A DNA stretch of 64,000 nt, from contig NZ_JALIQS010000008.1 of NCBI RefSeq assembly GCF_024704725.1, positions 124,001 to 188,000 on the forward strand, given 5' to 3'. This DNA is from Shinella sp. CPCC 101442 (GTDB taxonomy: Bacteria > Pseudomonadota > Alphaproteobacteria > Rhizobiales > Rhizobiaceae). Shown here piece by piece: positions 2,187 to 26,510 of this stretch. Both the position numbers and the translations under genes were made by a program. The notes beneath the pieces are model-generated. The model did no database searches. It worked only from the letters and a program-made list of their open reading frames with translations, and was not told where the DNA came from. The number at the start of each line of letters is the position of its first letter. Position 1 is the first letter of the stretch.

Positions 2187-3398
2187 ATGCAATCGGGAAA
2201 TGTGGCGACGCCGTTCGGGCGTCGGCCGATGTCGCTTGCGCTCGCGCGGCGCCAAGCGGCGATGGCCGAGATCAAGCAAGGAAAGACCGTCGATAAGTGG
2301 AAAGTCTTCAGAGACGCTTCCGCCGCTATGGGACTTTTAGGAATTCAGTCGAATAGCCTTGCTGTTCTCGACGCGCTTTTGAGCTTCTTTCCTGACACCG
2401 AGTTGCGTCAGGACGCACAATTGATCGTTTTCCCATCGAACGCACAACTAGCGCTTCGGGCGCATGCGATGGCGGGCGCGACGTTGCGCAGGCACATTGC
2501 TATACTCGTGGAGGCTGGACTGATCGTCCGTAAGGATAGCGCCAACGGTAAGCGTTACGCCCGCAAGGGCCAGGATGGTCAGATCGAGAACGCTTTCGGC
2601 TTCGACTTGTCACCGCTCTTGGCACGCTCGGAAGAGTTGGCGCTATTGGCGCAGCGGGTCATGGCAGATAGAGCTGCATTGCGACAGGCAAAAGAAAACC
2701 TGACCATTTGCCGACGCGACGTCCGCAAACTCATCACGGCTGCGATGGAAGAAGGTGTCGATGGCGATTGGCAGACTATTGAGGATATCTATGTGGGGAC
2801 CGTGAGCAGGATTCCGCGGGTTTCGACCCTCACCTCCCTCACGGCAATTCTCGAGGAAATGCAGATGCTTCGCGACGAAGTCCTTAATCGGTTGGAAATT
2901 CTGCAAAATTCACAGAATCACAGCACCAATGCCGCTCATAACGAGCAGCACATACATAATTCAAAACCCGAATCCTTAAATGAACTTGAACCTCGCTCAC
3001 GAAAAGAGCAGGGGGCAAACCCGAGCTCTAGTCAGCAGCCTACGTATGAGCAGCAGAGGCCGTTTCCGTTAGGATTAGTGCTCAAGGCATGCCCGACAAT
3101 CATCGATTACGCGCTGGGCGGCGTACGGAGCTGGCGCGATCTGATGTCGGCTGCTGTGGTTGTTCGATCTACGCTCGGCGTGAGCCCTTCCGCCTATCAG
3201 GAAGCGTGTGAGGCCCTTGGACCAGAGAATGCGGCCGTAGCGATCGCATGCATCCTGGAGAGGGCGAATTTCATCAACTCTGCAGGAGGTTACTTACGTG
3301 ATCTGACGCGCCGAAGCGAGCGCGGGGAATTCTCGCTTGGTCCGATGGTGATGGCATTATTTAAGGCTAATGGGCAGCGCCACCTTAAGGTCGGGTAG
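2187..3398 (+). CDS. repC: RepC, replication initiator
   Basis: RepC initiator of repABC replicons, 403 residues, the usual length. The start is an ATG with GAAGGGTGAG upstream. The N-terminal winged-helix region includes FPSNAQLALRAHAMAGATLRRHIAILVEAGLIVRKDSANGKRYA-like sequence (about residues 88-135), typical for the family; the C-terminal domain follows an Asn/Gln-rich linker (about residues 245-290). The DNA encoding that linker (about 2905-3050) is more AT-rich than its surroundings and is the likely site of oriV, which in studied repABC plasmids lies inside repC. Confidence 0.95.
   Translation: MQSGNVATPFGRRPMSLALARRQAAMAEIKQGKTVDKWKVFRDASAAMGLLGIQSNSLAVLDALLSFFPDTELRQDAQLIVFPSNAQLALRAHAMAGATLRRHIAILVEAGLIVRKDSANGKRYARKGQDGQIENAFGFDLSPLLARSEELALLAQRVMADRAALRQAKENLTICRRDVRKLITAAMEEGVDGDWQTIEDIYVGTVSRIPRVSTLTSLTAILEEMQMLRDEVLNRLEILQNSQNHSTNAAHNEQHIHNSKPESLNELEPRSRKEQGANPSSSQQPTYEQQRPFPLGLVLKACPTIIDYALGGVRSWRDLMSAAVVVRSTLGVSPSAYQEACEALGPENAAVAIACILERANFINSAGGYLRDLTRRSERGEFSLGPMVMALFKANGQRHLKVG
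2905..3050. other. Probable replication origin region inside repC
   Basis: This stretch of repC is visibly AT-richer than the flanks and encodes the low-complexity linker between the two RepC domains. In characterised repABC replicons oriV lies within the repC coding sequence in such an AT-rich segment. No iteron array is visible. The placement is inference from family knowledge plus base composition. Confidence 0.4.
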
Positions 3399-14342: not shown

Positions 14343-15365
14343 CTATCCTTGAGGCTTTTGCCGATCTCGCGAGGCCCGCTCGGACAGGGTTCTGTCGTAG
14401 CTCTGCTTGACAATAGTGGCCAGGGTCTGGAGATCGTACGGCTTGACCACTAGGTGCGTCGGCTCTGGCTTCGGTCCGGAAAGAAGCTTCTCCGGGTAAG
14501 CCGTGATGAAGATCACTGATGCATCCGAGAAGGACACGATCCGGTTCGCGGCGCCGAGGCCGGAACTTCCATCGGCAAGTACGATCTCCGCGGTTATCAG
14601 GTCGGGTTTCAAGCGTGCAGCGAGATCGACTGCGTCCTGTTCTGTTCGAGCAACGCCACCGACAAGAAATCCCTGCTGGTCAAGGAAGTGGGAAAGGTCT
14701 TCCGCAGTCCTCGGCTCGCTCTCGACCACCAGTGCTACAGGCCGAAGCTTCTGCAGGGCTGAGAGCTGCCTGCCCAGTTCCCTGTTTACGGAGGTCAGCT
14801 TTGCGATGTCAGATGCGCGCGCGCGGTTCTCATTCTCGATCCTGTCGAACTCTCCACGTTCCACTTTTGGTGAGGAAGGCATTCTGCCCAGCGCTTCAGG
14901 CAACTCCTTCTCCCAGCGCCTCCGCTTGCGGTCGAAGTGGTCGTTGTCATGCCCTTCAATGCTCACGACCTCCAGGACTGTTTTGCGCACGGCTTGCAGC
15001 ATTTCGGCATTCGTAATTTCCCAACCCTGCCGAAGGCCGAGGGTTCTGGTCACTTCGCTGAAGGCTACAGGAGGGACAACGATGGGCAACGGTGTCAAGG
15101 ACTTCACCCAGGTCGCTCCGACTTCCATCAGACAGAAGGCGCTGTCCATGTAGGACGGTGTCATGAGCAGGATGACCAATTTGGGTTCCTGGATCTGATC
15201 CCGCATGTCGACGTTGAAGTCGTGGGTCAGCGGAACTCCGTAACCCGGCAGGCTGGAGCAGAAGATCGATCTCGGCGGTACGCCGATGGCATCGACGAGC
15301 AGATCAACCACCATTTCCGCAAGATGTCGGTCGGCTACAGCGTGGCTGACGAATATGTCCCGCAT
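14343..15365 (-). CDS. TIR domain fused to a degenerate PhyR-like receiver domain
   Basis: Start set at the ATG at 15365: homology begins with MRDIFVSHAVADRHLAEMVV, while the longer frame to 15677 is antisense to a DUF1403 remnant. Residues 1-140 form a TIR-like domain (VSHA at the start, LVILLMTPSYMDSAFCLMEVGATW) with Glu81 in the place of the catalytic NADase Glu. A helical linker follows (150-205), then a receiver domain (210-325) whose LADGSSGLGAANRIV and VIFITAYPEKLLSGPKPEPT segments match the receiver of the general stress regulator PhyR. The phosphoacceptor Asp is Glu260 (ITAEIVLADG) and the acidic pair is changed (VVESEP); Lys308 is kept. It could be an NAD-consuming or signalling effector controlled by a receiver that cannot be phosphorylated normally. 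Confidence 0.8.
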   Translation of the reverse strand: MRDIFVSHAVADRHLAEMVVDLLVDAIGVPPRSIFCSSLPGYGVPLTHDFNVDMRDQIQEPKLVILLMTPSYMDSAFCLMEVGATWVKSLTPLPIVVPPVAFSEVTRTLGLRQGWEITNAEMLQAVRKTVLEVVSIEGHDNDHFDRKRRRWEKELPEALGRMPSSPKVERGEFDRIENENRARASDIAKLTSVNRELGRQLSALQKLRPVALVVESEPRTAEDLSHFLDQQGFLVGGVARTEQDAVDLAARLKPDLITAEIVLADGSSGLGAANRIVSFSDASVIFITAYPEKLLSGPKPEPTHLVVKPYDLQTLATIVKQSYDRTLSERASRDRQKPQG

Positions 15366-15445: not shown

Positions 15446-15845
15446 AACTGACGGGCAGATCACCGCGGCCGTAGACCACGCCGGCGATGCGCTGCAATCC
15501 GGCCGGCCGGCGCCGGTCGCTGCCGTGGAACTTGTCACAGCCATGCATTCCGTGCGGCCGGATGCCTAGCCGCTCGCCTATATGCTGGCCGATCTGCTGA
15601 TCGCCGCGCTGCTGAAATGGAGTTTTGCCGTGCCGGTGCTGATGGCCGAGCGCTACGGGTCGGCCTTCAATACGCACCGGGGCAGGGGCCGCGTGCGCCC
15701 GGGGGATCCGGCCTTTGCCCGAGCCCTCTGCCTTGCCTTGGTCGAGGAAGCAAGCGCGGCCTAGCGCACCGCCTTTGACATCGCCCGCCGCGCCGAGACG
15801 CTAGGCGCCGCGGCGTCAAAGGTTCGCACGAAGGGCGCCGGCGCT
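15446..15845 (+). pseudogene. DUF1403-family gene remnant
   Basis: Plus-strand reading gives ITAAVDHAGDALQSGRPAPV and so on, a TAG (15567-15569), then [40 protein letters not shown], a second TAG (15762-15764), and TAFDIARRAETLGAAASKVR. This order matches the C-terminal half of DUF1403 proteins. The N-terminal half is missing and there are two in-frame stops. It runs without a gap into the ScpB remnant. DUF1403, ScpB and DUF1612 genes are commonly clustered on rhizobial plasmids, so this is probably debris of the same cluster as 7784-10274. Confidence 0.7.
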
Positions 15846-15849
15846 ATCC

Positions 15850-16175
15850 GACTTCGAGGCCATGGTGCTGATGGCCATGCGTATTTCCAGCCGATCACCC
15901 GCGGCGACCTGTCGAAAATCTTCGGCAAGGAGGTCAGCCGCGATACGATACCCAGCCTGCGCCATGCCAACTTCTTCGCCTCCGGTCCACGCAGCCCGAC
16001 GTCGGGCACTCTATGCACCTATGTCACGACGAAGCACTTCCTGTCGGCCTTCGGCATGCAGACGTTGCGCCATCTGCCAGATGTCGAGGCATTGAAGGAT
16101 GCGGGGTTGCTCAGCCGGCAGGGCCTTCATACCGAGCAACTCCCTAGCGAGGTCGGCGACGAGGAAGCGCAGTAA
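15850..16175 (+). pseudogene. Plasmid ScpB-like gene remnant (frameshifted)
   Basis: SDFEAMVLMAM is read in one frame; after a 1-nt loss near 15878 the reading continues as AYFQPITRGDLSKIFGKEVS and then DTIPSLRHANFFASGPRSPT, YTYVTT-like LCTYVTTKHFLSAFGMQTLR, to LHTEQLPSEVGDEEAQ and a TAA (16173-16175). This matches the winged-helix C-terminal part of ScpB, a condensin subunit. The N-terminal part is absent. Because of the deletion, the DUF1403 frame reads straight into the ScpB frame, creating a chance chimeric frame. Confidence 0.7.
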
Positions 16176-16203: not shown

Positions 16204-19200
16204 TTATCCTTCGGAGGAGTGGTCCTTCCTAAATGTGTTGATCCGAATGCCGCCGAAGATCGCTGGCGCGAATGAAGATATAAGGCGTCGTTCAACTAGC
16301 CAGGTGGCGAGGGCCTCATTCACTGGATTGCTGTCGATCTTCGGATATCTTCCATACTCGGCGATGTCGCGATAGGGAGAAGGAAAATTCTGTAGAATTT
16401 CGCGCACCTCTGTCGTTGAAAGCACGCTGTGCAACTTGTTGAGAAGCGAGATTTGCAGTTCTTCCGGGCGAGAGTTCAGAATGATCGCTCGAACATATTC
16501 CGGTTTATTGTCCTTCGCTTCAATTACTGAACGATCAAGAATCGGCCCGATGGCCGACGCAAGAGACGGGCTGCTGACGATGAGGTCGGGTTCAATGTCT
16601 GCAACCACGATCATCTTTTGCGGGTCGCTAATCCCGGAGTTCAGCAACCTCTCGCGGATCGCGATGTCGATGGGGATCTCGGTGCGTTTTGCGAGGTAGT
16701 CCCCGAAGTTGTGCTCTATGAAAAGCGCCTTCAGACCCTCGTCCTCAATCTCGCCGACGTTTTCAGCGGAGAATTCGACTTTGCGCTCTCTGATCAGAAT
16801 CTCGATTTTTGTCGCTCCAACTTTTTGAAGAGCTTTGAACGGTCTCGGTAGCTTCCTGACGTATGAGCGATAGGCGTCGTCTGGCAATACGTCGTTCGCG
16901 ATGAGGTACTTCCGTAGAGGGTAGGCGGCGTCGCCATCAGGAACAGTGTTTTGAGACAGCTCGGCTCTCACGTCGTGATCTTGGAGGTAGGCCATCAGCA
17001 CCTCGGGTTTGTAGCCCTTGCCGGAAAGGTAAGCCAAGCAGTTTTCCCAGGAGTTGACGATCTTCTTCTCGAGAAATAGCGCCGAATGAAACTCAGTTGG
17101 TACGCCGTCGAGAGAAGACAAAACGGCTGTCTGCATGGTGAGAAATGCCGCGCGTTGCTCCACTGCCACGTCATCTCGATTCAGCACCTCAAATATAGCT
17201 GAGGCATCTTCTCCCGTGTTTCTTTCGAGCTTGAGCAGGACGTTGCGGATATAAATCTCGAAGGCGGAATCAAGCCGCTTCAAAAGCGGAGCGTAAGCGG
17301 CTTCACGCAGACAGGAAAAGTTTCGGCTTCTTAGATCGTCGAGCTTCGGGTACCTGACCACTTGCTCCATGATCTGTGCGACGTTGCCGACAGTGATCCG
17401 ATAAAGTCCCCCCGATGCCACGTGCTCAAGTACGCTTTTAAATCCAACGAGGGTTGAGATGTCCTCGATTTGAACCCCAAGAGCGCTTAGAATGTCTAGG
17501 TCGAACGAGATGCCTTCGTCGAGAATCCTACTCAGCTGCTGCGCAACGAACCGTGCCATAGCGACGCTACCAGGGGATCCCTTCGTCAGCGCGCCGTTTG
17601 GTGCGTATGCAAGAATTCGGGCCGCGTGCGAAACCGCCGAGGCTCCCTTCAAGGCGAGAACAGGGAAAGCGGGTGATTTGCGGATCAGCCTCGCGGTCAG
17701 CTCATCTACATGCGCCCCGCGCTCGTAGTAGCTTGAAAAGAAGTCTTCGCACCCCGGAACGTCAGTCAGAATAAACTCTATGGCGCTATTGGCTTGGGAC
17801 GAATATTCTTCGGCGTTTTCCATGAGGAAATCGATCAAGAAGCGGTTGAGTACGTAGGTCCGTCCGAAGTCCTCCTCGCGCATCGAGGCAATAACTTCAG
17901 GGATATTGTCTAGCTGGAAATCAGGATCGGGTGTTGTGAAACTGCGGATCTGTATTAGGAACTTATTATCGTTGAGCGACAGTCGACCACCATGAAACAG
18001 GGAAGTGTACTGATAATAAGTGTCATCGAGATAACCTTCCAAGATTAGGAATTTCAGGAGGTCACGGCTTTCACCGACGTCGGCGAAGACCTGATCGATT
18101 AGAGCAGCATTGTCTCTTACAACTTCGTTGAACTTCCGGGTTCGCAATGAGGCGAGACGGGCCTTTAGTTCCTGAGACCTCTTTGCCGCCGCCTCCCTGT
18201 AATCCGAAGACTTCTGCTCGATTAGCGATTTACGGTGCGCGAAGGTCCGGGTCGAGTCGACTTTGGCCTCAACCCCACGAAGCTCGATATCCGTTCTATA
18301 ACCATTCACGTTCCGCGCTTTAATTGAACCGGACGAGAGAATCGCCTCAAAGTCGGGATCACGCGAGAGCTGAAGCAATGCGATTTGGCCGCTTGGGGTC
18401 TCAAAATGCGTATATTGAATCGGAACGAGTTCGATTATTGCCAGAGCGTAGATCCCATGCAGCTCATTGATGTCCCTGATGGAATGGTCATCGCTACGAG
18501 CGAGCTCAGCTTGTATTGCGCCAAGCTCAGAACGGATTTTCTCCGCCGCACTCTCCACGAATTCGTCATATCGCTTTAGGACGTTCGAGAGCGCACCTTC
18601 CTGTCGATGCAGCGCGGCAAAGTCCTTGGGTATCACGTTTTTGTAGATGAGAATTGCAAGGAGCTTGTTCGGGTCTAGCGCTCCATCTCCCTCAGCCCGT
18701 AAGTTTGACGCGTAGATCGTGTACTCATTGAAAATATTTCCGATAAGTCTCAGATCAGCGAGGTATCGTGATACTTCGCGAATGAAGCGTCTGTCGAGCC
18801 GCGCATCGAGATCGATTCGCTGGGAATGTTCCAGCACCTTGTCGATTGAGTTGGAGTGGTTGATTATCGGTATAACGGGAACGATGAACTCGAAAAACTT
18901 GGTCCTGTCTGTGTTGAGGAATATGTCGTCACGTAAAGCATAGAGAAACCGAATCCGACGGTGTACGTCTGCGTTCTCGTTCACAAGCGCGTTGATTTCT
19001 CTCAAGGTGACGAAAATGTCTGGTGTATCAAACCGGTCGAGATCTTCTATCACCACGAGATCGTAGTCCGTAGACTGAAAGAAATAGATGATTTCATCAA
19101 GATGCTTATTGAGGATCGAGCCTTCGTCGGCGGCATTTGGCGCTATCTCAATGTCCTTGAGCGAGATGCTTTTCAGCGAGAGACCAAGACTTTTGAGATA

Positions 19201-19803
19201 AATGCTGTGAACTGCGCGCCAGAAAAATGCCGATGCGAGTATAAACGCGGAAATATTGAACCAGTTCGACCAATCAAACGGCTTGAAGAATTTTGCTGAT
19301 AGAATATCAGCTTGGCTGGTGACAACATGTAAGGCGGCGGCAATCCCGAGGCAGGCAGCCAGGGAGCTTATCGGTGACCATTTGCTTGGGGCTTGAATGC
19401 GCTTAAAGCGGGACAGCGGCAACTTGTCGGAGTCTGCCCCATAAAGGATCTGTTGGAGAATACTCCTTTCAATCTCTTGTTTGCTAACCTTCACTCCAGG
19501 TACTTCGCCTTCCGGGATGAATGAGGCTAGCGAAAGCTTGAGATGTCTCCTCGGGTATGTGAGCAGAAACGATTTTATGACGCTGCTTTTGCCCGAGCCG
19601 TAAGGCCCGGTAAGCGCGATGTTGAACACCTCCTCGTTGTTCGTTGCGAACGTCAATGCCCGACGATAGATTCCGCTTTCGTCCGCGTTGCTGGTTGGCG
19701 CAAGATCAACGAATCCGGTCTCGTGTGATTGCGGATCGGACTTCCGGGAAAAGAAATTCCAGATCAAAGAAAATGGGTTCAAAGCGTTACGTCCGTTGCT
19801 CAT
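16204..19803 (-). CDS. YobI-like membrane-anchored P-loop NTPase
   Basis: Very long protein, 1199 residues. Walker A is LTGPYGSGKSSVIKSF (about 64-79) and Walker B VVIEDLDRFDTPDIF (about 250-264), a KAP/STAND-like arrangement. Two hydrophobic helices (about 145-163 and 183-198) are inserted between Walker A and Walker B, as in KAP and YobI families, so the NTPase is likely tethered to the inner membrane. Residues 400-1199 are a long mostly helical region with no recognised catalytic motif. YobI-type NTPases have been proposed to act in conflict systems. The gene is divergent from the TrlF-like gene; the 274-bp gap should hold both promoters. Confidence 0.75.
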   Translation of the reverse strand: MSNGRNALNPFSLIWNFFSRKSDPQSHETGFVDLAPTSNADESGIYRRALTFATNNEEVFNIALTGPYGSGKSSVIKSFLLTYPRRHLKLSLASFIPEGEVPGVKVSKQEIERSILQQILYGADSDKLPLSRFKRIQAPSKWSPISSLAACLGIAAALHVVTSQADILSAKFFKPFDWSNWFNISAFILASAFFWRAVHSIYLKSLGLSLKSISLKDIEIAPNAADEGSILNKHLDEIIYFFQSTDYDLVVIEDLDRFDTPDIFVTLREINALVNENADVHRRIRFLYALRDDIFLNTDRTKFFEFIVPVIPIINHSNSIDKVLEHSQRIDLDARLDRRFIREVSRYLADLRLIGNIFNEYTIYASNLRAEGDGALDPNKLLAILIYKNVIPKDFAALHRQEGALSNVLKRYDEFVESAAEKIRSELGAIQAELARSDDHSIRDINELHGIYALAIIELVPIQYTHFETPSGQIALLQLSRDPDFEAILSSGSIKARNVNGYRTDIELRGVEAKVDSTRTFAHRKSLIEQKSSDYREAAAKRSQELKARLASLRTRKFNEVVRDNAALIDQVFADVGESRDLLKFLILEGYLDDTYYQYTSLFHGGRLSLNDNKFLIQIRSFTTPDPDFQLDNIPEVIASMREEDFGRTYVLNRFLIDFLMENAEEYSSQANSAIEFILTDVPGCEDFFSSYYERGAHVDELTARLIRKSPAFPVLALKGASAVSHAARILAYAPNGALTKGSPGSVAMARFVAQQLSRILDEGISFDLDILSALGVQIEDISTLVGFKSVLEHVASGGLYRITVGNVAQIMEQVVRYPKLDDLRSRNFSCLREAAYAPLLKRLDSAFEIYIRNVLLKLERNTGEDASAIFEVLNRDDVAVEQRAAFLTMQTAVLSSLDGVPTEFHSALFLEKKIVNSWENCLAYLSGKGYKPEVLMAYLQDHDVRAELSQNTVPDGDAAYPLRKYLIANDVLPDDAYRSYVRKLPRPFKALQKVGATKIEILIRERKVEFSAENVGEIEDEGLKALFIEHNFGDYLAKRTEIPIDIAIRERLLNSGISDPQKMIVVADIEPDLIVSSPSLASAIGPILDRSVIEAKDNKPEYVRAIILNSRPEELQISLLNKLHSVLSTTEVREILQNFPSPYRDIAEYGRYPKIDSNPVNEALATWLVERRLISSFAPAIFGGIRINTFRKDHSSEG

Positions 19804-20077
19804 TCCGGAATGTCAAAGCTCGCGAGTGCAGCAGCTATTTTGGGACGTTATATATTTTTCACATGGTTGCAACTTATCGGTAAGTCGTGCCCTTCCGATA
19901 TCCCGCATAGTTTGAGCACTGGGATATGTCCAGCGACGCGGCACGTCGTCATATCAGCGGAGATCCACCTCACCGACAGATCTCGCTCATGCGCGGCGAG
20001 ACCAAATATTTGGTCCGAATTTTTTCCTTGGCAGGTTGGAATGCGGCGCTACTGTTCAGGCCAATGGGAGGACCAAA

Positions 20078-22921
20078 ATGCATCAACTCGGACATCACCC
20101 CGGTACCGTCTGGCAACGTAGCGATCTCCAAATGCACACGCCCCGAGATGGGAAATGGATCGGGAATGAGATTGAATCCGACGATACAGCAGAGCTTCTA
20201 TCAATGCGCTCAGCGTGGGCGAGAAAGCTGATCGAACACTGCCTTAGTGCAGAGCCCCCGGTCACCGCGATTGCCATCACGGATCATCACGACTACTGCA
20301 TTGCCGAGGTGGTCCGTCTTGAGGCCCAGGGTTCTGGACTGACTGTTTATGTGGGCGTCGAGGTAACGTGCAGCGATAACGCACAATGCCTAATCGTGTT
20401 TGACCCTGCCACGAGTACAGACATAATCGGAAAGGTTCTGGCTGCTCTGCCCGGTGTCCCTCCCCATGCGGACCATCATTCTCGCGGCCCATCAATAGCT
20501 CACGCAAATCTCAGCGTCGCTCAACTGGCCGAAATGCTCGAGAAGAATCCGCTGTTTCAAGGTCAGTATCTGTTGCTCCCTCATTTTGGCGATGGGAATG
20601 CGCACAAGACGCTTAACGTCCCCAGCACTGGACCCCGATTTGCGGCTCTGACATGCGAGGGTGTATATGTCGAAAAGCCCTACTCCGATCTGGAATCCGG
20701 AACCCTAGAAAAGCTCAAGGGAGCTGTCGCTGAGTGGGGAAGACGTCGGCGCGGCGTGGTCGTCACAGGCGACAACAGGAATGACAACTTTGAGCGCGTG
20801 GCTGCTCATCCTTGCTGGCTCAAGTTAGGGGAACCAACGATCGAAGCCCTTCGGCAGGCCCTGTTGGCCGACGAAGCGCGGATTGCTTACGCACTGCCTC
20901 GGGAGCCGTCCGAGCGCATCATCGCATTGCGTGTTCAATCCGCACTCACCGGAGAAGCTCCGCTTGATATCACTTTCAATGCAGGCTTCAACGCGCTTGT
21001 TGGCGGACGTGGCACGGGAAAAAGCGCTATTCTTGAATATCTCAGGTTTGGACTTGCGCGGACAGATGCTGACATTCCTCGTGCTGACGGGGGCACTGAG
21101 AACAGCCGAGGCGATGCGCTGATCTCGCAGACTTTAATTGGCGGGTTTGTCGAAATCGAGCTGGAACGCGAGGGTGTTGCGGAGACATGGCGACGGGAGC
21201 TAACCACCCGAGACTTTATCCAATGCACTGACAAACAGGGCGTGATTACACGGCTGACTCTTGACGCGGCAAGGGAGCGATTCCGAGCCCGAGCATTTCG
21301 CCAGAAGGGATTGTCGTCGCTCACCACTGATCAGGCGAATGCATCAGATCAGGTTACCGGAATAGCAGCGGCAGAAGCGCTAGCACGCAGGCGCGAGGTT
21401 GATCGATCAATAGGAAATGCGAAAAGGACGGTTGCCACCGCTCTTCAGCAGCTTGTCTCCCATTGGCAAGCGACTCTCGAAATAAATCAGGCCGCAGCAA
21501 GAGTTGCCGACCTAGCCCAGCGAGTTCAATCGCTGAACACGCTGCTCGCTCAAGGCGGAGTGTCGGACGAGCACCTGCATGTCATTGAGACGGCAGGTAT
21601 CCATGCGAGGGTAAATGGGTTTTTGGAGACAGTGTCTGATGCGCTTTTGTCAGAACAACAGGACATTCCAAGCAGCTCGCGCCTGGAAGTGACAATTCCT
21701 GAAACAATCTCTGAAGTGGAGTTCCCTCACATCCATAGTCTCGCGAAGGCTGTAGACAAAACCAAGGCTGAAATTGCAGCCGCTTACGACACTGCGCGGA
21801 AATCACTGGAGGAGCTGCGGACGGCCCTACACGTCGTGAGGGATCAGCAAGATGGACTGGACGTCCAGCTGGCAACACGGCTCTTGGACGCGAACGAAGC
21901 GCAGACTTCCCACCGGACGCTCATTGATGACAGCAAGCGTTTGGGCATTGAACTAGGGGAGGCTGAACAGGGACTGAGACGGGCTACCGCTAGGACACAG
22001 GATACGAAGGCCTATGAAGTTGCGTTTAGGAAGGCGCAGTTGGATATCATTGAGTTGCTGAACAACCGCCGCCAAGTGCTGGCCGATGCTGCGGGGCAGG
22101 TGGCAGGAAAGTCGAGCGGCCTATTAAAGGCAAGGCTTGGGAAGGATAAAGCCCCGACAGAGTATGTGAGCGCCCTGCGTCGCCTCACGGAAGGCGCATA
22201 CATTTCGGACGCTGAGCAGAAATGCAGCGACTGGGTTAAAGCTGCACTTGCGGCTGACGAGCTCGCTTGGACAAAGATCAGCGCCGAGCTTCTGGCTATT
22301 TACAGTCTAAAGATTGCTGCAGGTTCACCGACGGAGCCCGGGAACGACATTGTAACCCGCCTGCGCAATGTGTTTTTCAGCGGCGCGGGGGTGACGGACA
22401 GACAGGCAGGCCGTATCTATCTCAATCTCTCGGACAGTACATTGGCGGATGTCATTTCAGCGGTTCCGCAGGACCGCATTGTTATGACCTATGTTGACGA
22501 GAGTGGACGGGAGATGCCCTTTGGGCAGGCTTCGCCGGGACAGCAAGCGTCAGCGCTTCTGGAACTTCTGCTTCGACAATCGGCTGGAACGCTCGTTATT
22601 GATCAGCCGGAAGACGATTTGGACAACAGGGTGATCATGAAGATCGTTTCGTTGGTCCGGTCATCAAAATCCAACCGGCAGCTGGTCTTCACGACCCATA
22701 ACCCGAATATCGTTGTGAACGGGGACGCAGATAAAGTCATAGCGTTGAAAACGCGGGAGGCACAGGCCGGAGGCAAGTATGATGGCCCTGTGGTTAGCCT
22801 GCAGGTGGACGGCGCTATCGAAACCGCAGAGATCAGGAAATACATTACCCATCTGATCGAAGGTGGCCGCGAAGCGTTCGATCTTCGCAGCCGTAAATAT
22901 GGATATGAGGCTGAAAGGTAG
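20078..22921 (+). CDS. TrlF-like protein: PHP phosphoesterase plus SMC-like ATPase
   Basis: 947 residues from the ATG at 20078, chosen because GGGAGG lies 8 nt upstream; the longer frame from 20036 lacks this. The N-terminal PHP domain has metal-binding motifs DLQMHTPRD (His20), ITDHHD (68-72), GVEVTC (Glu95) and LLPHFGDGNAHK. An ABC/SMC-type ATPase follows: Walker A LVGGRGTGKS (about 307-316), a long coiled coil (about 430-700) and Walker B TLVIDQPEDDLDNR, with TTHNPNIVVNGDAD after it. Proteins of this architecture (TrlF family) are found in defence-type islands; nucleolytic or phosphoesterase activity gated by the ATPase is inferred. It is divergent from the YobI-like NTPase. Confidence 0.85.
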   Translation: MHQLGHHPGTVWQRSDLQMHTPRDGKWIGNEIESDDTAELLSMRSAWARKLIEHCLSAEPPVTAIAITDHHDYCIAEVVRLEAQGSGLTVYVGVEVTCSDNAQCLIVFDPATSTDIIGKVLAALPGVPPHADHHSRGPSIAHANLSVAQLAEMLEKNPLFQGQYLLLPHFGDGNAHKTLNVPSTGPRFAALTCEGVYVEKPYSDLESGTLEKLKGAVAEWGRRRRGVVVTGDNRNDNFERVAAHPCWLKLGEPTIEALRQALLADEARIAYALPREPSERIIALRVQSALTGEAPLDITFNAGFNALVGGRGTGKSAILEYLRFGLARTDADIPRADGGTENSRGDALISQTLIGGFVEIELEREGVAETWRRELTTRDFIQCTDKQGVITRLTLDAARERFRARAFRQKGLSSLTTDQANASDQVTGIAAAEALARRREVDRSIGNAKRTVATALQQLVSHWQATLEINQAAARVADLAQRVQSLNTLLAQGGVSDEHLHVIETAGIHARVNGFLETVSDALLSEQQDIPSSSRLEVTIPETISEVEFPHIHSLAKAVDKTKAEIAAAYDTARKSLEELRTALHVVRDQQDGLDVQLATRLLDANEAQTSHRTLIDDSKRLGIELGEAEQGLRRATARTQDTKAYEVAFRKAQLDIIELLNNRRQVLADAAGQVAGKSSGLLKARLGKDKAPTEYVSALRRLTEGAYISDAEQKCSDWVKAALAADELAWTKISAELLAIYSLKIAAGSPTEPGNDIVTRLRNVFFSGAGVTDRQAGRIYLNLSDSTLADVISAVPQDRIVMTYVDESGREMPFGQASPGQQASALLELLLRQSAGTLVIDQPEDDLDNRVIMKIVSLVRSSKSNRQLVFTTHNPNIVVNGDADKVIALKTREAQAGGKYDGPVVSLQVDGAIETAEIRKYITHLIEGGREAFDLRSRKYGYEAER

Positions 22922-26148: not shown

Positions 26149-26510
26149 ACCTGAAGATGATGTCCGACTGTCATTCTCAGCATGCTATTGCTCTAACATG
26201 TATTCGCACAAAAGACGAATTCGTCGCCGCCGGTTCGGTCCCGCTCAAGGCGGAGGCGACTAACGCATTTCGGCGTGTCGCCAATGAACTAGAATAGGTC
26301 ACCCGCTTCGTACACGGCGGCGTGGTACGCTTGGTCCCGGCGATGAATTTGCCCACGGCGGCGGCGGGCCGGATTCACGCGACAGGCCAAAGCCGATCGT
26401 TCCGCGGGACATGTTCACGCCCGATCTTCATATCGATACGTTGAAGGTGAAGAGCCGGAATCTTCACTGAAAAATGCTCAAACCGGGCGTGTCGAGGGAG
26501 TGCATGCAGC
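26149..26510. other. Region without an intact gene
   Basis: A plus-strand stretch near 26377-26470 reads PKPIVPRDMFTPDLHIDTLK and ends in a stop, which looks like the tail of a lost gene. No start or family is recognisable. The rest is unassigned. Confidence 0.3.

What the first reader, a model, noticed from the sequence alone, without database searches (positions are those of the whole stretch)
14343..15365. TIR domain fused to a PhyR-like receiver that lacks the phosphoacceptor Asp
TIR domains usually pair with STAND, Sir2 or cyclic-nucleotide sensor modules. Here the partner is a receiver whose LADGSSGLGAANRIV and VIFITAYPEKLLSGPKPEPT segments match the receiver of PhyR, the anti-anti-sigma factor of the alphaproteobacterial general stress response. 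The acceptor Asp is Glu260 (codon GAG), and one acidic-pocket residue is Ser (VVESEP). A Glu can mimic the phosphorylated state, so the receiver may be locked or may bind another protein, for example a NepR-like anti-sigma factor. Glu81 of the TIR domain fits a catalytic NADase residue. This could couple stress signalling to NAD depletion.
Basis: partly seen in the sequence, partly recalled or inferred. Interest (0 to 1): 0.72.

Follow-up and report, generated by a model that had tools for sequence, protein, structure and literature searches.

The report
Suicide enzyme with disarmed stress receiver
A plasmid gene of soil bacteria joins an enzyme domain of the kind that destroys NAD to a copy of the general-stress-response switch PhyR whose phosphate-accepting residue has been replaced by glutamate, a pairing that recurs in related genes and was not described in the papers searched.

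Summary
Confirmed and extended. The gene (minus strand, 14343-15365, 340 aa) encodes an N-terminal TIR domain closest to the anti-phage NADase SpbK, a long helical linker, and a C-terminal receiver nearest to PhyR receivers. Glu at the phospho-acceptor position is not a strain mutation: 30 of 32 aligned homologues (this one included) have Glu260, 2 have Asp. Ser, Pro or Gly replaces one acidic-pocket residue in 27 of 32; Thr288 and Lys308 are kept in 31 of 31; TIR Glu81 in 32 of 32.

The family is rare and patchy, named members being nearly all Rhizobiales. This window carries RepC, a plasmid gene, and Tmn- and Ppl-like defence genes stand beside the TIR gene. Relatives carry the same TIR with a different C-terminal half, so the receiver sits where a sensor would.

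Best explanation: an NAD-consuming abortive-infection or stress effector triggered through a PhyR-derived pseudo-receiver that works by protein contact or oligomerisation, not by phosphorylation. NepR binding is unlikely: the sigma-like domain that binds NepR is absent. NADase activity, trigger and phenotype are inferred. A known kind of system with a new control module; a receiver as non-phosphorylated sensor of a defence effector has one proposed precedent, CRISPR Cam2.

The parts
14343..15365 (-). TIR-pseudo-receiver gene, 340 aa, ATG start
14961..15365 (-). TIR domain (residues 1-135), SpbK-like
15123..15125 (-). Glu81, putative catalytic Glu; aligns with SpbK E192; 32 of 32
14751..14858 (-). 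long linker helix (residues 170-205), perhaps coiled coil; low identity but constant linker length in 18 of 32 homologues
14400..14744 (-). PhyR-type pseudo-receiver (residues 208-322)
14718..14720 (-). Ser216 in place of the second acidic-pocket residue
14586..14588 (-). Glu260 in place of the phospho-acceptor Asp; Glu in 30 of 32
14502..14504 (-). Thr288, conserved switch Thr (31 of 31; one row ends before it)
14442..14444 (-). Lys308, conserved Lys (31 of 31; one row ends before it)
16204..19803 (-). neighbour: Tmn-like YobI P-loop ATPase (defence gene family)
   Evidence: PADLOC 9.9e-75; Pfam YobI-ATPase
20036..22921 (+). neighbour: Ppl-like SMC/AAA ATPase (defence gene family)
   Evidence: PADLOC 2.9e-39, best stretch C-terminal (797-951)
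2187..3398 (+). RepC-type plasmid replication gene: places the window on a plasmid-type replicon
   Evidence: Pfam RP-C at G000:C8:126223-126744 = window 2223-2744; ORF

Best explanation
A mobile, plasmid-borne effector. The TIR domain is an NAD-cleaving enzyme that, like SpbK, is active only when TIR domains stack. The receiver, derived from PhyR, has lost phosphorylation (Glu260, broken acidic pocket) and serves as a sensing and oligomerising module joined to the TIR by a helical, perhaps coiled-coil, linker. Contact of the receiver (most likely its conserved beta3-alpha3 loop and beta4-alpha4 edge) with a partner protein, of a phage or of the host's stress pathway, would bring TIR domains together, deplete NAD and stop or kill the cell. 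Shown: domain make-up, ancestry, conservation, rarity, context. Inferred: NADase activity, partner, trigger, outcome.
For: The TIR matches SpbK best in sequence and fold; Glu81, Gly83 and Trp86 align with SpbK E192, G194 and W197; E192 is modelled in the SpbK active site, and G194R and W197A lose NADase activity and defence (passages of PMC12847820). Glu260 in 30 of 32, pocket residue lost in 27 of 32, Thr288 and Lys308 in 31 of 31. The receivers form one group against 10 PhyRs, support 100/99. The stretch most alike between family and PhyR is beta4-alpha4, residues 289-302 (cross-identity 0.64), then the beta3-alpha3 loop (0.55). Relatives carry the same TIR with another C-terminal half, as expected if that half is an exchangeable sensor. 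Rare: 2 of 394 genomes of the family, own genome included; the TIR in 4 of 397 genomes of the order, own included. Defence neighbours here (Tmn, Ppl) and in L004 (SduA 1.2e-154).
Against: No activity or phage data. Of 10 loci only 2 (window, L004) have traced defence neighbours; others sit among DNA-repair or ordinary plasmid genes. Two homologues have a complete Asp site, so some members may still be phosphorylated. The AF2 pTM is 0.54: the arrangement of domains is not resolved. Outside the rim of the old site the receiver has diverged from PhyR: alpha5 0.27, alpha2 0.28, alpha1 0.34.
Confidence: 0.5

Rival explanations
1. Stress-response output. The Glu receiver is constitutively 'on' (phosphomimic) and the protein is controlled by its expression under general stress or DNA damage; NAD depletion is a stress-induced dormancy or death programme, not phage defence.
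For: Passages of PMC12632262: Glu in place of Asp partly activates many response regulators, and Glu is the most frequent residue at that place in Asp-less receivers. A LigD-like ATP-dependent DNA ligase lies within the fetched flanks of 4 of 9 other TIR-receiver loci (L002, L004, L005, L033) and of 0 of 13 sister loci (L008-L019, L021). Among 96 neighbour ORFs, SRAP occurs in 2 and impB/ImuB-type polymerase in 2.
Against: The window itself has no such ligase, so the count is 4 of 10 with it. L004, L005 and L033 look like one subfamily by eye, so the hits are not independent, and the sister loci come from other genera. SRAP matches also lie in sister loci L012 and L014. No GGAAC-type EcfG promoter pattern upstream. 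A permanently active NADase would be lethal unless tightly repressed.
Confidence: 0.18
2. Integrated decoy. The receiver is a bait copy of host PhyR. An invader's protein that targets PhyR binds the bait and triggers the TIR, as integrated-decoy domains do in plant NLRs (recalled).
For: Motifs shared with PhyR, LADGSSG and TA(F/Y)PE.LL..RPEP, are kept while the phosphorylation site is lost; the host has two PhyR-NepR pairs to be guarded.
Against: I know of no phage inhibitor of PhyR (recalled, not searched); alpha1, alpha2 and alpha5 have diverged from PhyR.
Confidence: 0.12
3. Small-molecule sensor. The receiver binds a nucleotide second messenger or other ligand at the former phosphorylation pocket, and ligand binding clusters the TIR.
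For: Cam2, a type III CRISPR effector, has a C-terminal REC domain proposed to bind a cyclic oligoadenylate instead of being phosphorylated (passages of PMC11229360; untested there). The rim of the pocket is the best-kept part here.
Against: No messenger-making partner was recognised among the PADLOC hits listed for the 96 neighbour ORFs at E 1e-15 or the 7 window genes; the listing of the latter is capped at 25 for two genes.
Confidence: 0.1
4. Partner of real PhyR or its kinases. The pseudo-receiver heterodimerises with PhyR or binds HWE/HisKA2 kinases and so reads the stress pathway directly.
For: PhyR ancestry of the receiver; proposed modes of pseudo-receivers acting through partner regulators in section 19 of PMC12632262 (read).
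Against: alpha1 and alpha5, usual kinase and dimer faces (recalled), are not the best-kept parts.
Confidence: 0.07
5. The receiver is a vestigial dimerisation block without sensing role.
For: Many residues outside the rim have drifted.
Against: Glu260, Thr288, Leu294, Leu295, Lys308 and Pro309 are nearly invariant over a diverged family.
Confidence: 0.03

Closest known systems
SpbK (Bacillus subtilis TIR NADase anti-phage protein)
   Same: Nearest TIR by sequence and fold; E192, G194 and W197 have counterparts; one-protein effector.
   Different: SpbK has an N-terminal portal-binding domain and a C-terminal TIR; here the TIR is N-terminal and a PhyR-type pseudo-receiver follows.
PhyR (anti-anti-sigma factor of the alphaproteobacterial general stress response)
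   Same: Nearest receiver by sequence and fold; shares LADGSSG and TA(F/Y)PE.LL..RPEP.
   Different: No sigma-like domain, hence no known NepR site; acceptor Asp is Glu in 30 of 32; the output domain is a TIR.
Bacterial pseudo-receivers (e.g. FrzS, ChxR)
   Same: Receiver fold used without phosphorylation; Glu is the most frequent replacement of the Asp (PMC12632262, passages; ChxR from a search listing).
   Different: Joined to a TIR; the words TIR and PhyR do not occur in the main text of that review.
Cam2 (type III CRISPR membrane effector with a C-terminal REC domain)
   Same: A REC domain proposed as non-phosphorylated sensor of a defence effector (PMC11229360, passages).
   Different: Membrane output, not TIR; belongs to CRISPR loci; no PhyR link given in the passages seen.
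Relatives with the same TIR and another C-terminal half (P0027 and similar)
   Same: TIR 51-57% identical to this one in 17 members aligned.
   Different: C-terminal half without a Pfam receiver; two members scanned gave no family over its cut-off there.
cRec domains near NAD/ADP-ribose systems (PMC7824862, PMC9503650; passages)
   Same: Receiver-derived domain tied to NAD metabolism in conflict systems.
   Different: cRec keeps the aspartates and is predicted to be an enzyme; here the acceptor Asp is lost.

Membership tests
TIR-domain NADases | TIR fold | tested here: met
TIR-domain NADases | catalytic Glu in the alpha-C helix | tested here: met
   Glu81 aligned with SpbK E192, 32 of 32
TIR-domain NADases | NAD cleavage | not testable with these tools
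   needs an enzyme assay
SpbK family | N-terminal portal-binding domain before a C-terminal TIR | tested here: not met
   PADLOC spbK matches only profile positions 150-251 of 308, at residues 3-105 of this protein
PhyR | PhyR-type receiver | tested here: met
PhyR | N-terminal sigma-like domain | tested here: not met
   residues 1-160 model as TIR plus a helix, 170-205 as one helix; over cut-off Pfam finds only TIR_2 and Response_reg
PhyR | phospho-acceptor Asp and two acidic-pocket residues | tested here: not met
   Glu260 and Ser216 here; 10 of 10 PhyRs have Asp and Glu-Asp
Pseudo-receiver (PsR) | receiver fold lacking residues needed for phosphotransfer | tested here: met
cRec | two conserved aspartates | tested here: not met
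   acceptor is Glu, pocket residue Ser; definition from passages
Anti-phage defence system | reduces phage propagation | not testable with these tools
   context only: Tmn and Ppl, SduA and PDC-S47 at L004

The most novel reading that the evidence does not exclude
A guard or decoy system of bacteria: a plasmid-borne TIR NADase carries an integrated, catalytically dead copy of the host's master stress switch (PhyR) as bait, so that an invader which tampers with the general stress response triggers NAD depletion. It would be a bacterial counterpart of integrated-decoy TIR-NLRs of plants.
Probability: 0.12. Interest if true: 0.85.

Novelty: new variant of a known kind. Interest (0 to 1): 0.53.

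Why it matters
It adds a PhyR-type pseudo-receiver to the modules that may control bacterial TIR enzymes, in a family where Glu at the acceptor position is fixed in 30 of 32 members while two keep a complete Asp site. That natural contrast, with an output that could be read as NAD loss, would let one test how a bacterial pseudo-receiver signals, which a 2025 review calls a mystery (abstract of PMC12632262). It may also link the alphaproteobacterial general stress response to abortive infection.

Tried and rejected
NepR binding: rejected as leading idea because the sigma-like domain is absent. EcfG promoter: patterns GGAA[CT]-N15-20-(C/G)GTT and GGAAC-N14-21-GT(T/C) in up to 400 bases upstream of 10 genes gave two hits, both GGAAT (L032 and the window), none with GGAAC; not taken as evidence. 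Single-strain mutation or pseudogene: rejected (open frame). cRec-type enzyme: rejected for lack of the Asp. Phage origin: 1 of 50,697 phage records matched, over 32% of the query in the TIR part.

Linker phase: linker length against P0001 differs by 0 in 18, +7 in 1, -7 in 1, +11 in 4, +22 in 3, +6 in 3, +31 in 1 and +23 in 1 of 32. Sevens and elevens suggest a coiled coil, but a rough count of 4 of 7 events, chosen by eye, gives P 0.11: only suggestive.

Single origin of the fusion: not rejected (AU p 0.164), not shown. Asp/Glu history: at least 3 changes on the receiver tree, direction unsettled because several deep branches are weak. The family-wide genome search scored at most 5 candidates per genome, so 2 of 394 is a lower bound, and its second hit, G113, is the genome of L007 (same contig). 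PhyR search of the class: 9 of 58 genomes at E 1e-40, used only as outgroup. The fold list of the whole model was filled by receivers, so the TIR was modelled alone.

Defence neighbours: PADLOC at 1e-15 on 96 ORFs around 9 loci gave 20 families. Re-scanning 30 of the 96 one by one traced SduA and PDC-S47 to L004, TnsB to L003, a homing-endonuclease match to L020, and PDC-S68, PDC-S53 and the RecD types to one 1370-aa protein of L006, taken as a plasmid helicase/relaxase match; PDC-S65 and the Pfam Abi_alpha match were not traced.

The ligand-sensor rival was added for that, and odds of the best reading went from 0.55 to 0.50, with small cuts to two rivals.

Full report
Observation. The ORF lies on the minus strand, 15365 to 14343, ATG start, 340 aa. 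Pfam finds TIR_2 at residues 4-97 and Response_reg at 212-319, both over their cut-offs. Among solved structures the receiver half matches PhyR proteins at E about 5e-25 and the TIR half SpbK at 1.5e-10 (3.8e-11 for the TIR alone).

Family. A search of about 5.8 billion proteins gave 464 relatives, 120 listed; a second, from 26 aligned proteins, gave 415, 120 listed. In the two listings I took 31 proteins as keeping the receiver (P0002-P0026, P0122-P0127; three are fragments); with P0001 they make the 32 rows of alignment A2. Relatives ranked below the listings were not seen. Source names are Agrobacterium, Rhizobium, Neorhizobium, Mesorhizobium and kin, with one MAG labelled Delftia; many rows have no name. 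Named ones are called 'response regulator', 'TIR domain-containing protein' or similar. The other listed relatives show a TIR without a Pfam receiver; thirteen read by eye carry a different C-terminal half, and two scanned (P0028, P0077) have no family over its cut-off there. Whole-genome contigs gave 28 loci of relatives, 7 matched into the receiver (L002-L007, L020). Of 63 plasmid records with a match, 2 cover at least 80% of the query, both Agrobacterium.

Glu260. In A2 the acceptor column is Glu in 30 and Asp in 2 (P0006, P0008) of 32. Position 216 is Pro 16, Ser 9, Asp 5, Gly 2. Glu81 is 32 of 32; Thr288 and Lys308 are 31 of 31, one row ending before them. The two Asp proteins also have Asp216, hence a complete site; P0021, P0022 and P0127 have Asp216 with Glu260. 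On a tree of 31 receivers and 10 PhyRs, the two variable columns left out, the two sets separate with support 100/99; the acceptor needs at least 3 changes and the pocket at least 4. Whether Glu arose several times or was reverted is open.

What is kept. A weighted comparison of family and PhyR shows the greatest likeness at the beta4-alpha4 stretch 289-302 (0.64) and the beta3-alpha3 loop 262-268 (0.55), and the least at beta3 with the acceptor (0.24), alpha5 (0.27) and alpha2 (0.28) (the ten PhyRs weigh as only 2.4 effective sequences). The rim around the former phosphorylation site is kept, its chemistry is not. In FrzS the alpha3-beta4-alpha4 surface of a pseudo-receiver binds a partner (PMC12632262 section 19, read), a fair precedent for protein contact; Cam2 is one proposed for a ligand.

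Linker. Helix 170-204 has mean pairwise identity 0.23 among the 18 rows with the same linker length, against 0.67 for the TIR part: length is constrained, letters are not. Length steps of 7, 11 and 22 suggest a coiled coil, but the statistics are weak.

Context. The window lies on a contig with RepC at window 2223-2744, inside the ORF 2187-3398, about 11 kb from the TIR gene; so the replicon is of plasmid type. On the 5' side of the gene stand a Tmn-like YobI ATPase and a Ppl-like ATPase; on its 3' side a DUF4236/SH3 protein, a UvrD-like helicase, DUF1612/HTH_13 and a phage-type integrase. Between the TIR gene and Tmn lie broken DUF1403 and ScpB remnants on the other strand. Around 9 other loci (96 ORFs of at least 150 aa within 9 kb), PADLOC at 1e-15 found a Shedu SduA (1.2e-154) and PDC-S47 at L004 and a TnsB-like transposase at L003; most further hits go to a helicase/relaxase-like protein of L006 and a homing-endonuclease match at L020, PDC-S65 being untraced. 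Pfam counted ATP-dependent DNA ligase in 3 of 96, SRAP in 2, impB/ImuB-type polymerase in 2 and Abi_alpha in 1. tblastn finds the ligase in 4 of 9 TIR-receiver loci (4 of 10 with the window, which has none) and in 0 of 13 sister loci, L008-L019 and L021; the ligase of L002 lies beyond the 9 kb cut used for the 96. Around the sister loci, type II methyltransferases match 2 of 116 ORFs (25 of 145 families listed).

Host. The same genome has two NepR matches and two PhyR matches, one NepR beside one PhyR on contig C3 and another such pair on C4. By eye, an ORF like an ECF sigma factor lies by the C3 pair.

Mechanism. SpbK is an inactive dimer until a phage portal protein clusters it; TIR domains then stack, and N191R, G194R and W197A lose NADase activity and defence (passages of PMC12847820). 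E192, G194 and W197 correspond to Glu81, Gly83 and Trp86 here (N191 to Met80, not conserved). By analogy the receiver plays the part of the SpbK N-terminal domain. Since the phosphate site is broken in most members, the input is most likely a protein contact. This is inference.

Literature. Searches for 'TIR domain' + 'PhyR' + 'receiver domain', 'TIR domain' + 'response regulator receiver' + 'anti-phage' and 'TIR domain' + 'response regulator' + 'Rhizobium' + 'general stress response' found no paper among 5.39 million open ones. Searches listed four papers in all: of three I saw passages, of PMC10586772 the listing only; none of what I saw describes a TIR joined to a receiver. Closed-access papers and bioRxiv preprints were not searched.

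Verdict. Real, conserved and not described in the papers searched; a known effector type with a new control module. NAD depletion and the stress link remain to be tested.

Noticed in passing
window 15570-16175, + strand: Two open pieces match DUF1403 (2.1e-15) and SMC_ScpB (1.4e-10, with a weak DUF1403 start): remnants of broken genes between the TIR gene and the Tmn-like gene, perhaps an insertion scar.
   Followed up: partly
window 16204-22921: Tmn-like and Ppl-like ATPases side by side on opposite strands: a small defence island on a plasmid-type replicon.
   Followed up: partly
window 26333-26467: A 47-residue stretch 70% identical to DnaE2 of L002, possibly a remnant of an error-prone polymerase gene.
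   Followed up: no
P0027 and similar proteins; L008-L019, L021: Many relatives, mostly alphaproteobacterial where named, with the same TIR and a C-terminal half that gave no Pfam family over its cut-off in the two members scanned.
   Followed up: partly
P0071: One relative has a resolvase domain (PF00239) in place of the usual C-terminal part; it may be a chimeric contig.
   Followed up: no
L004 14089-15264 and 17785-18573: Shedu SduA and a PDC-S47 protein within about 8 kb of the TIR-receiver gene in Neorhizobium galegae DS1978.
   Followed up: yes
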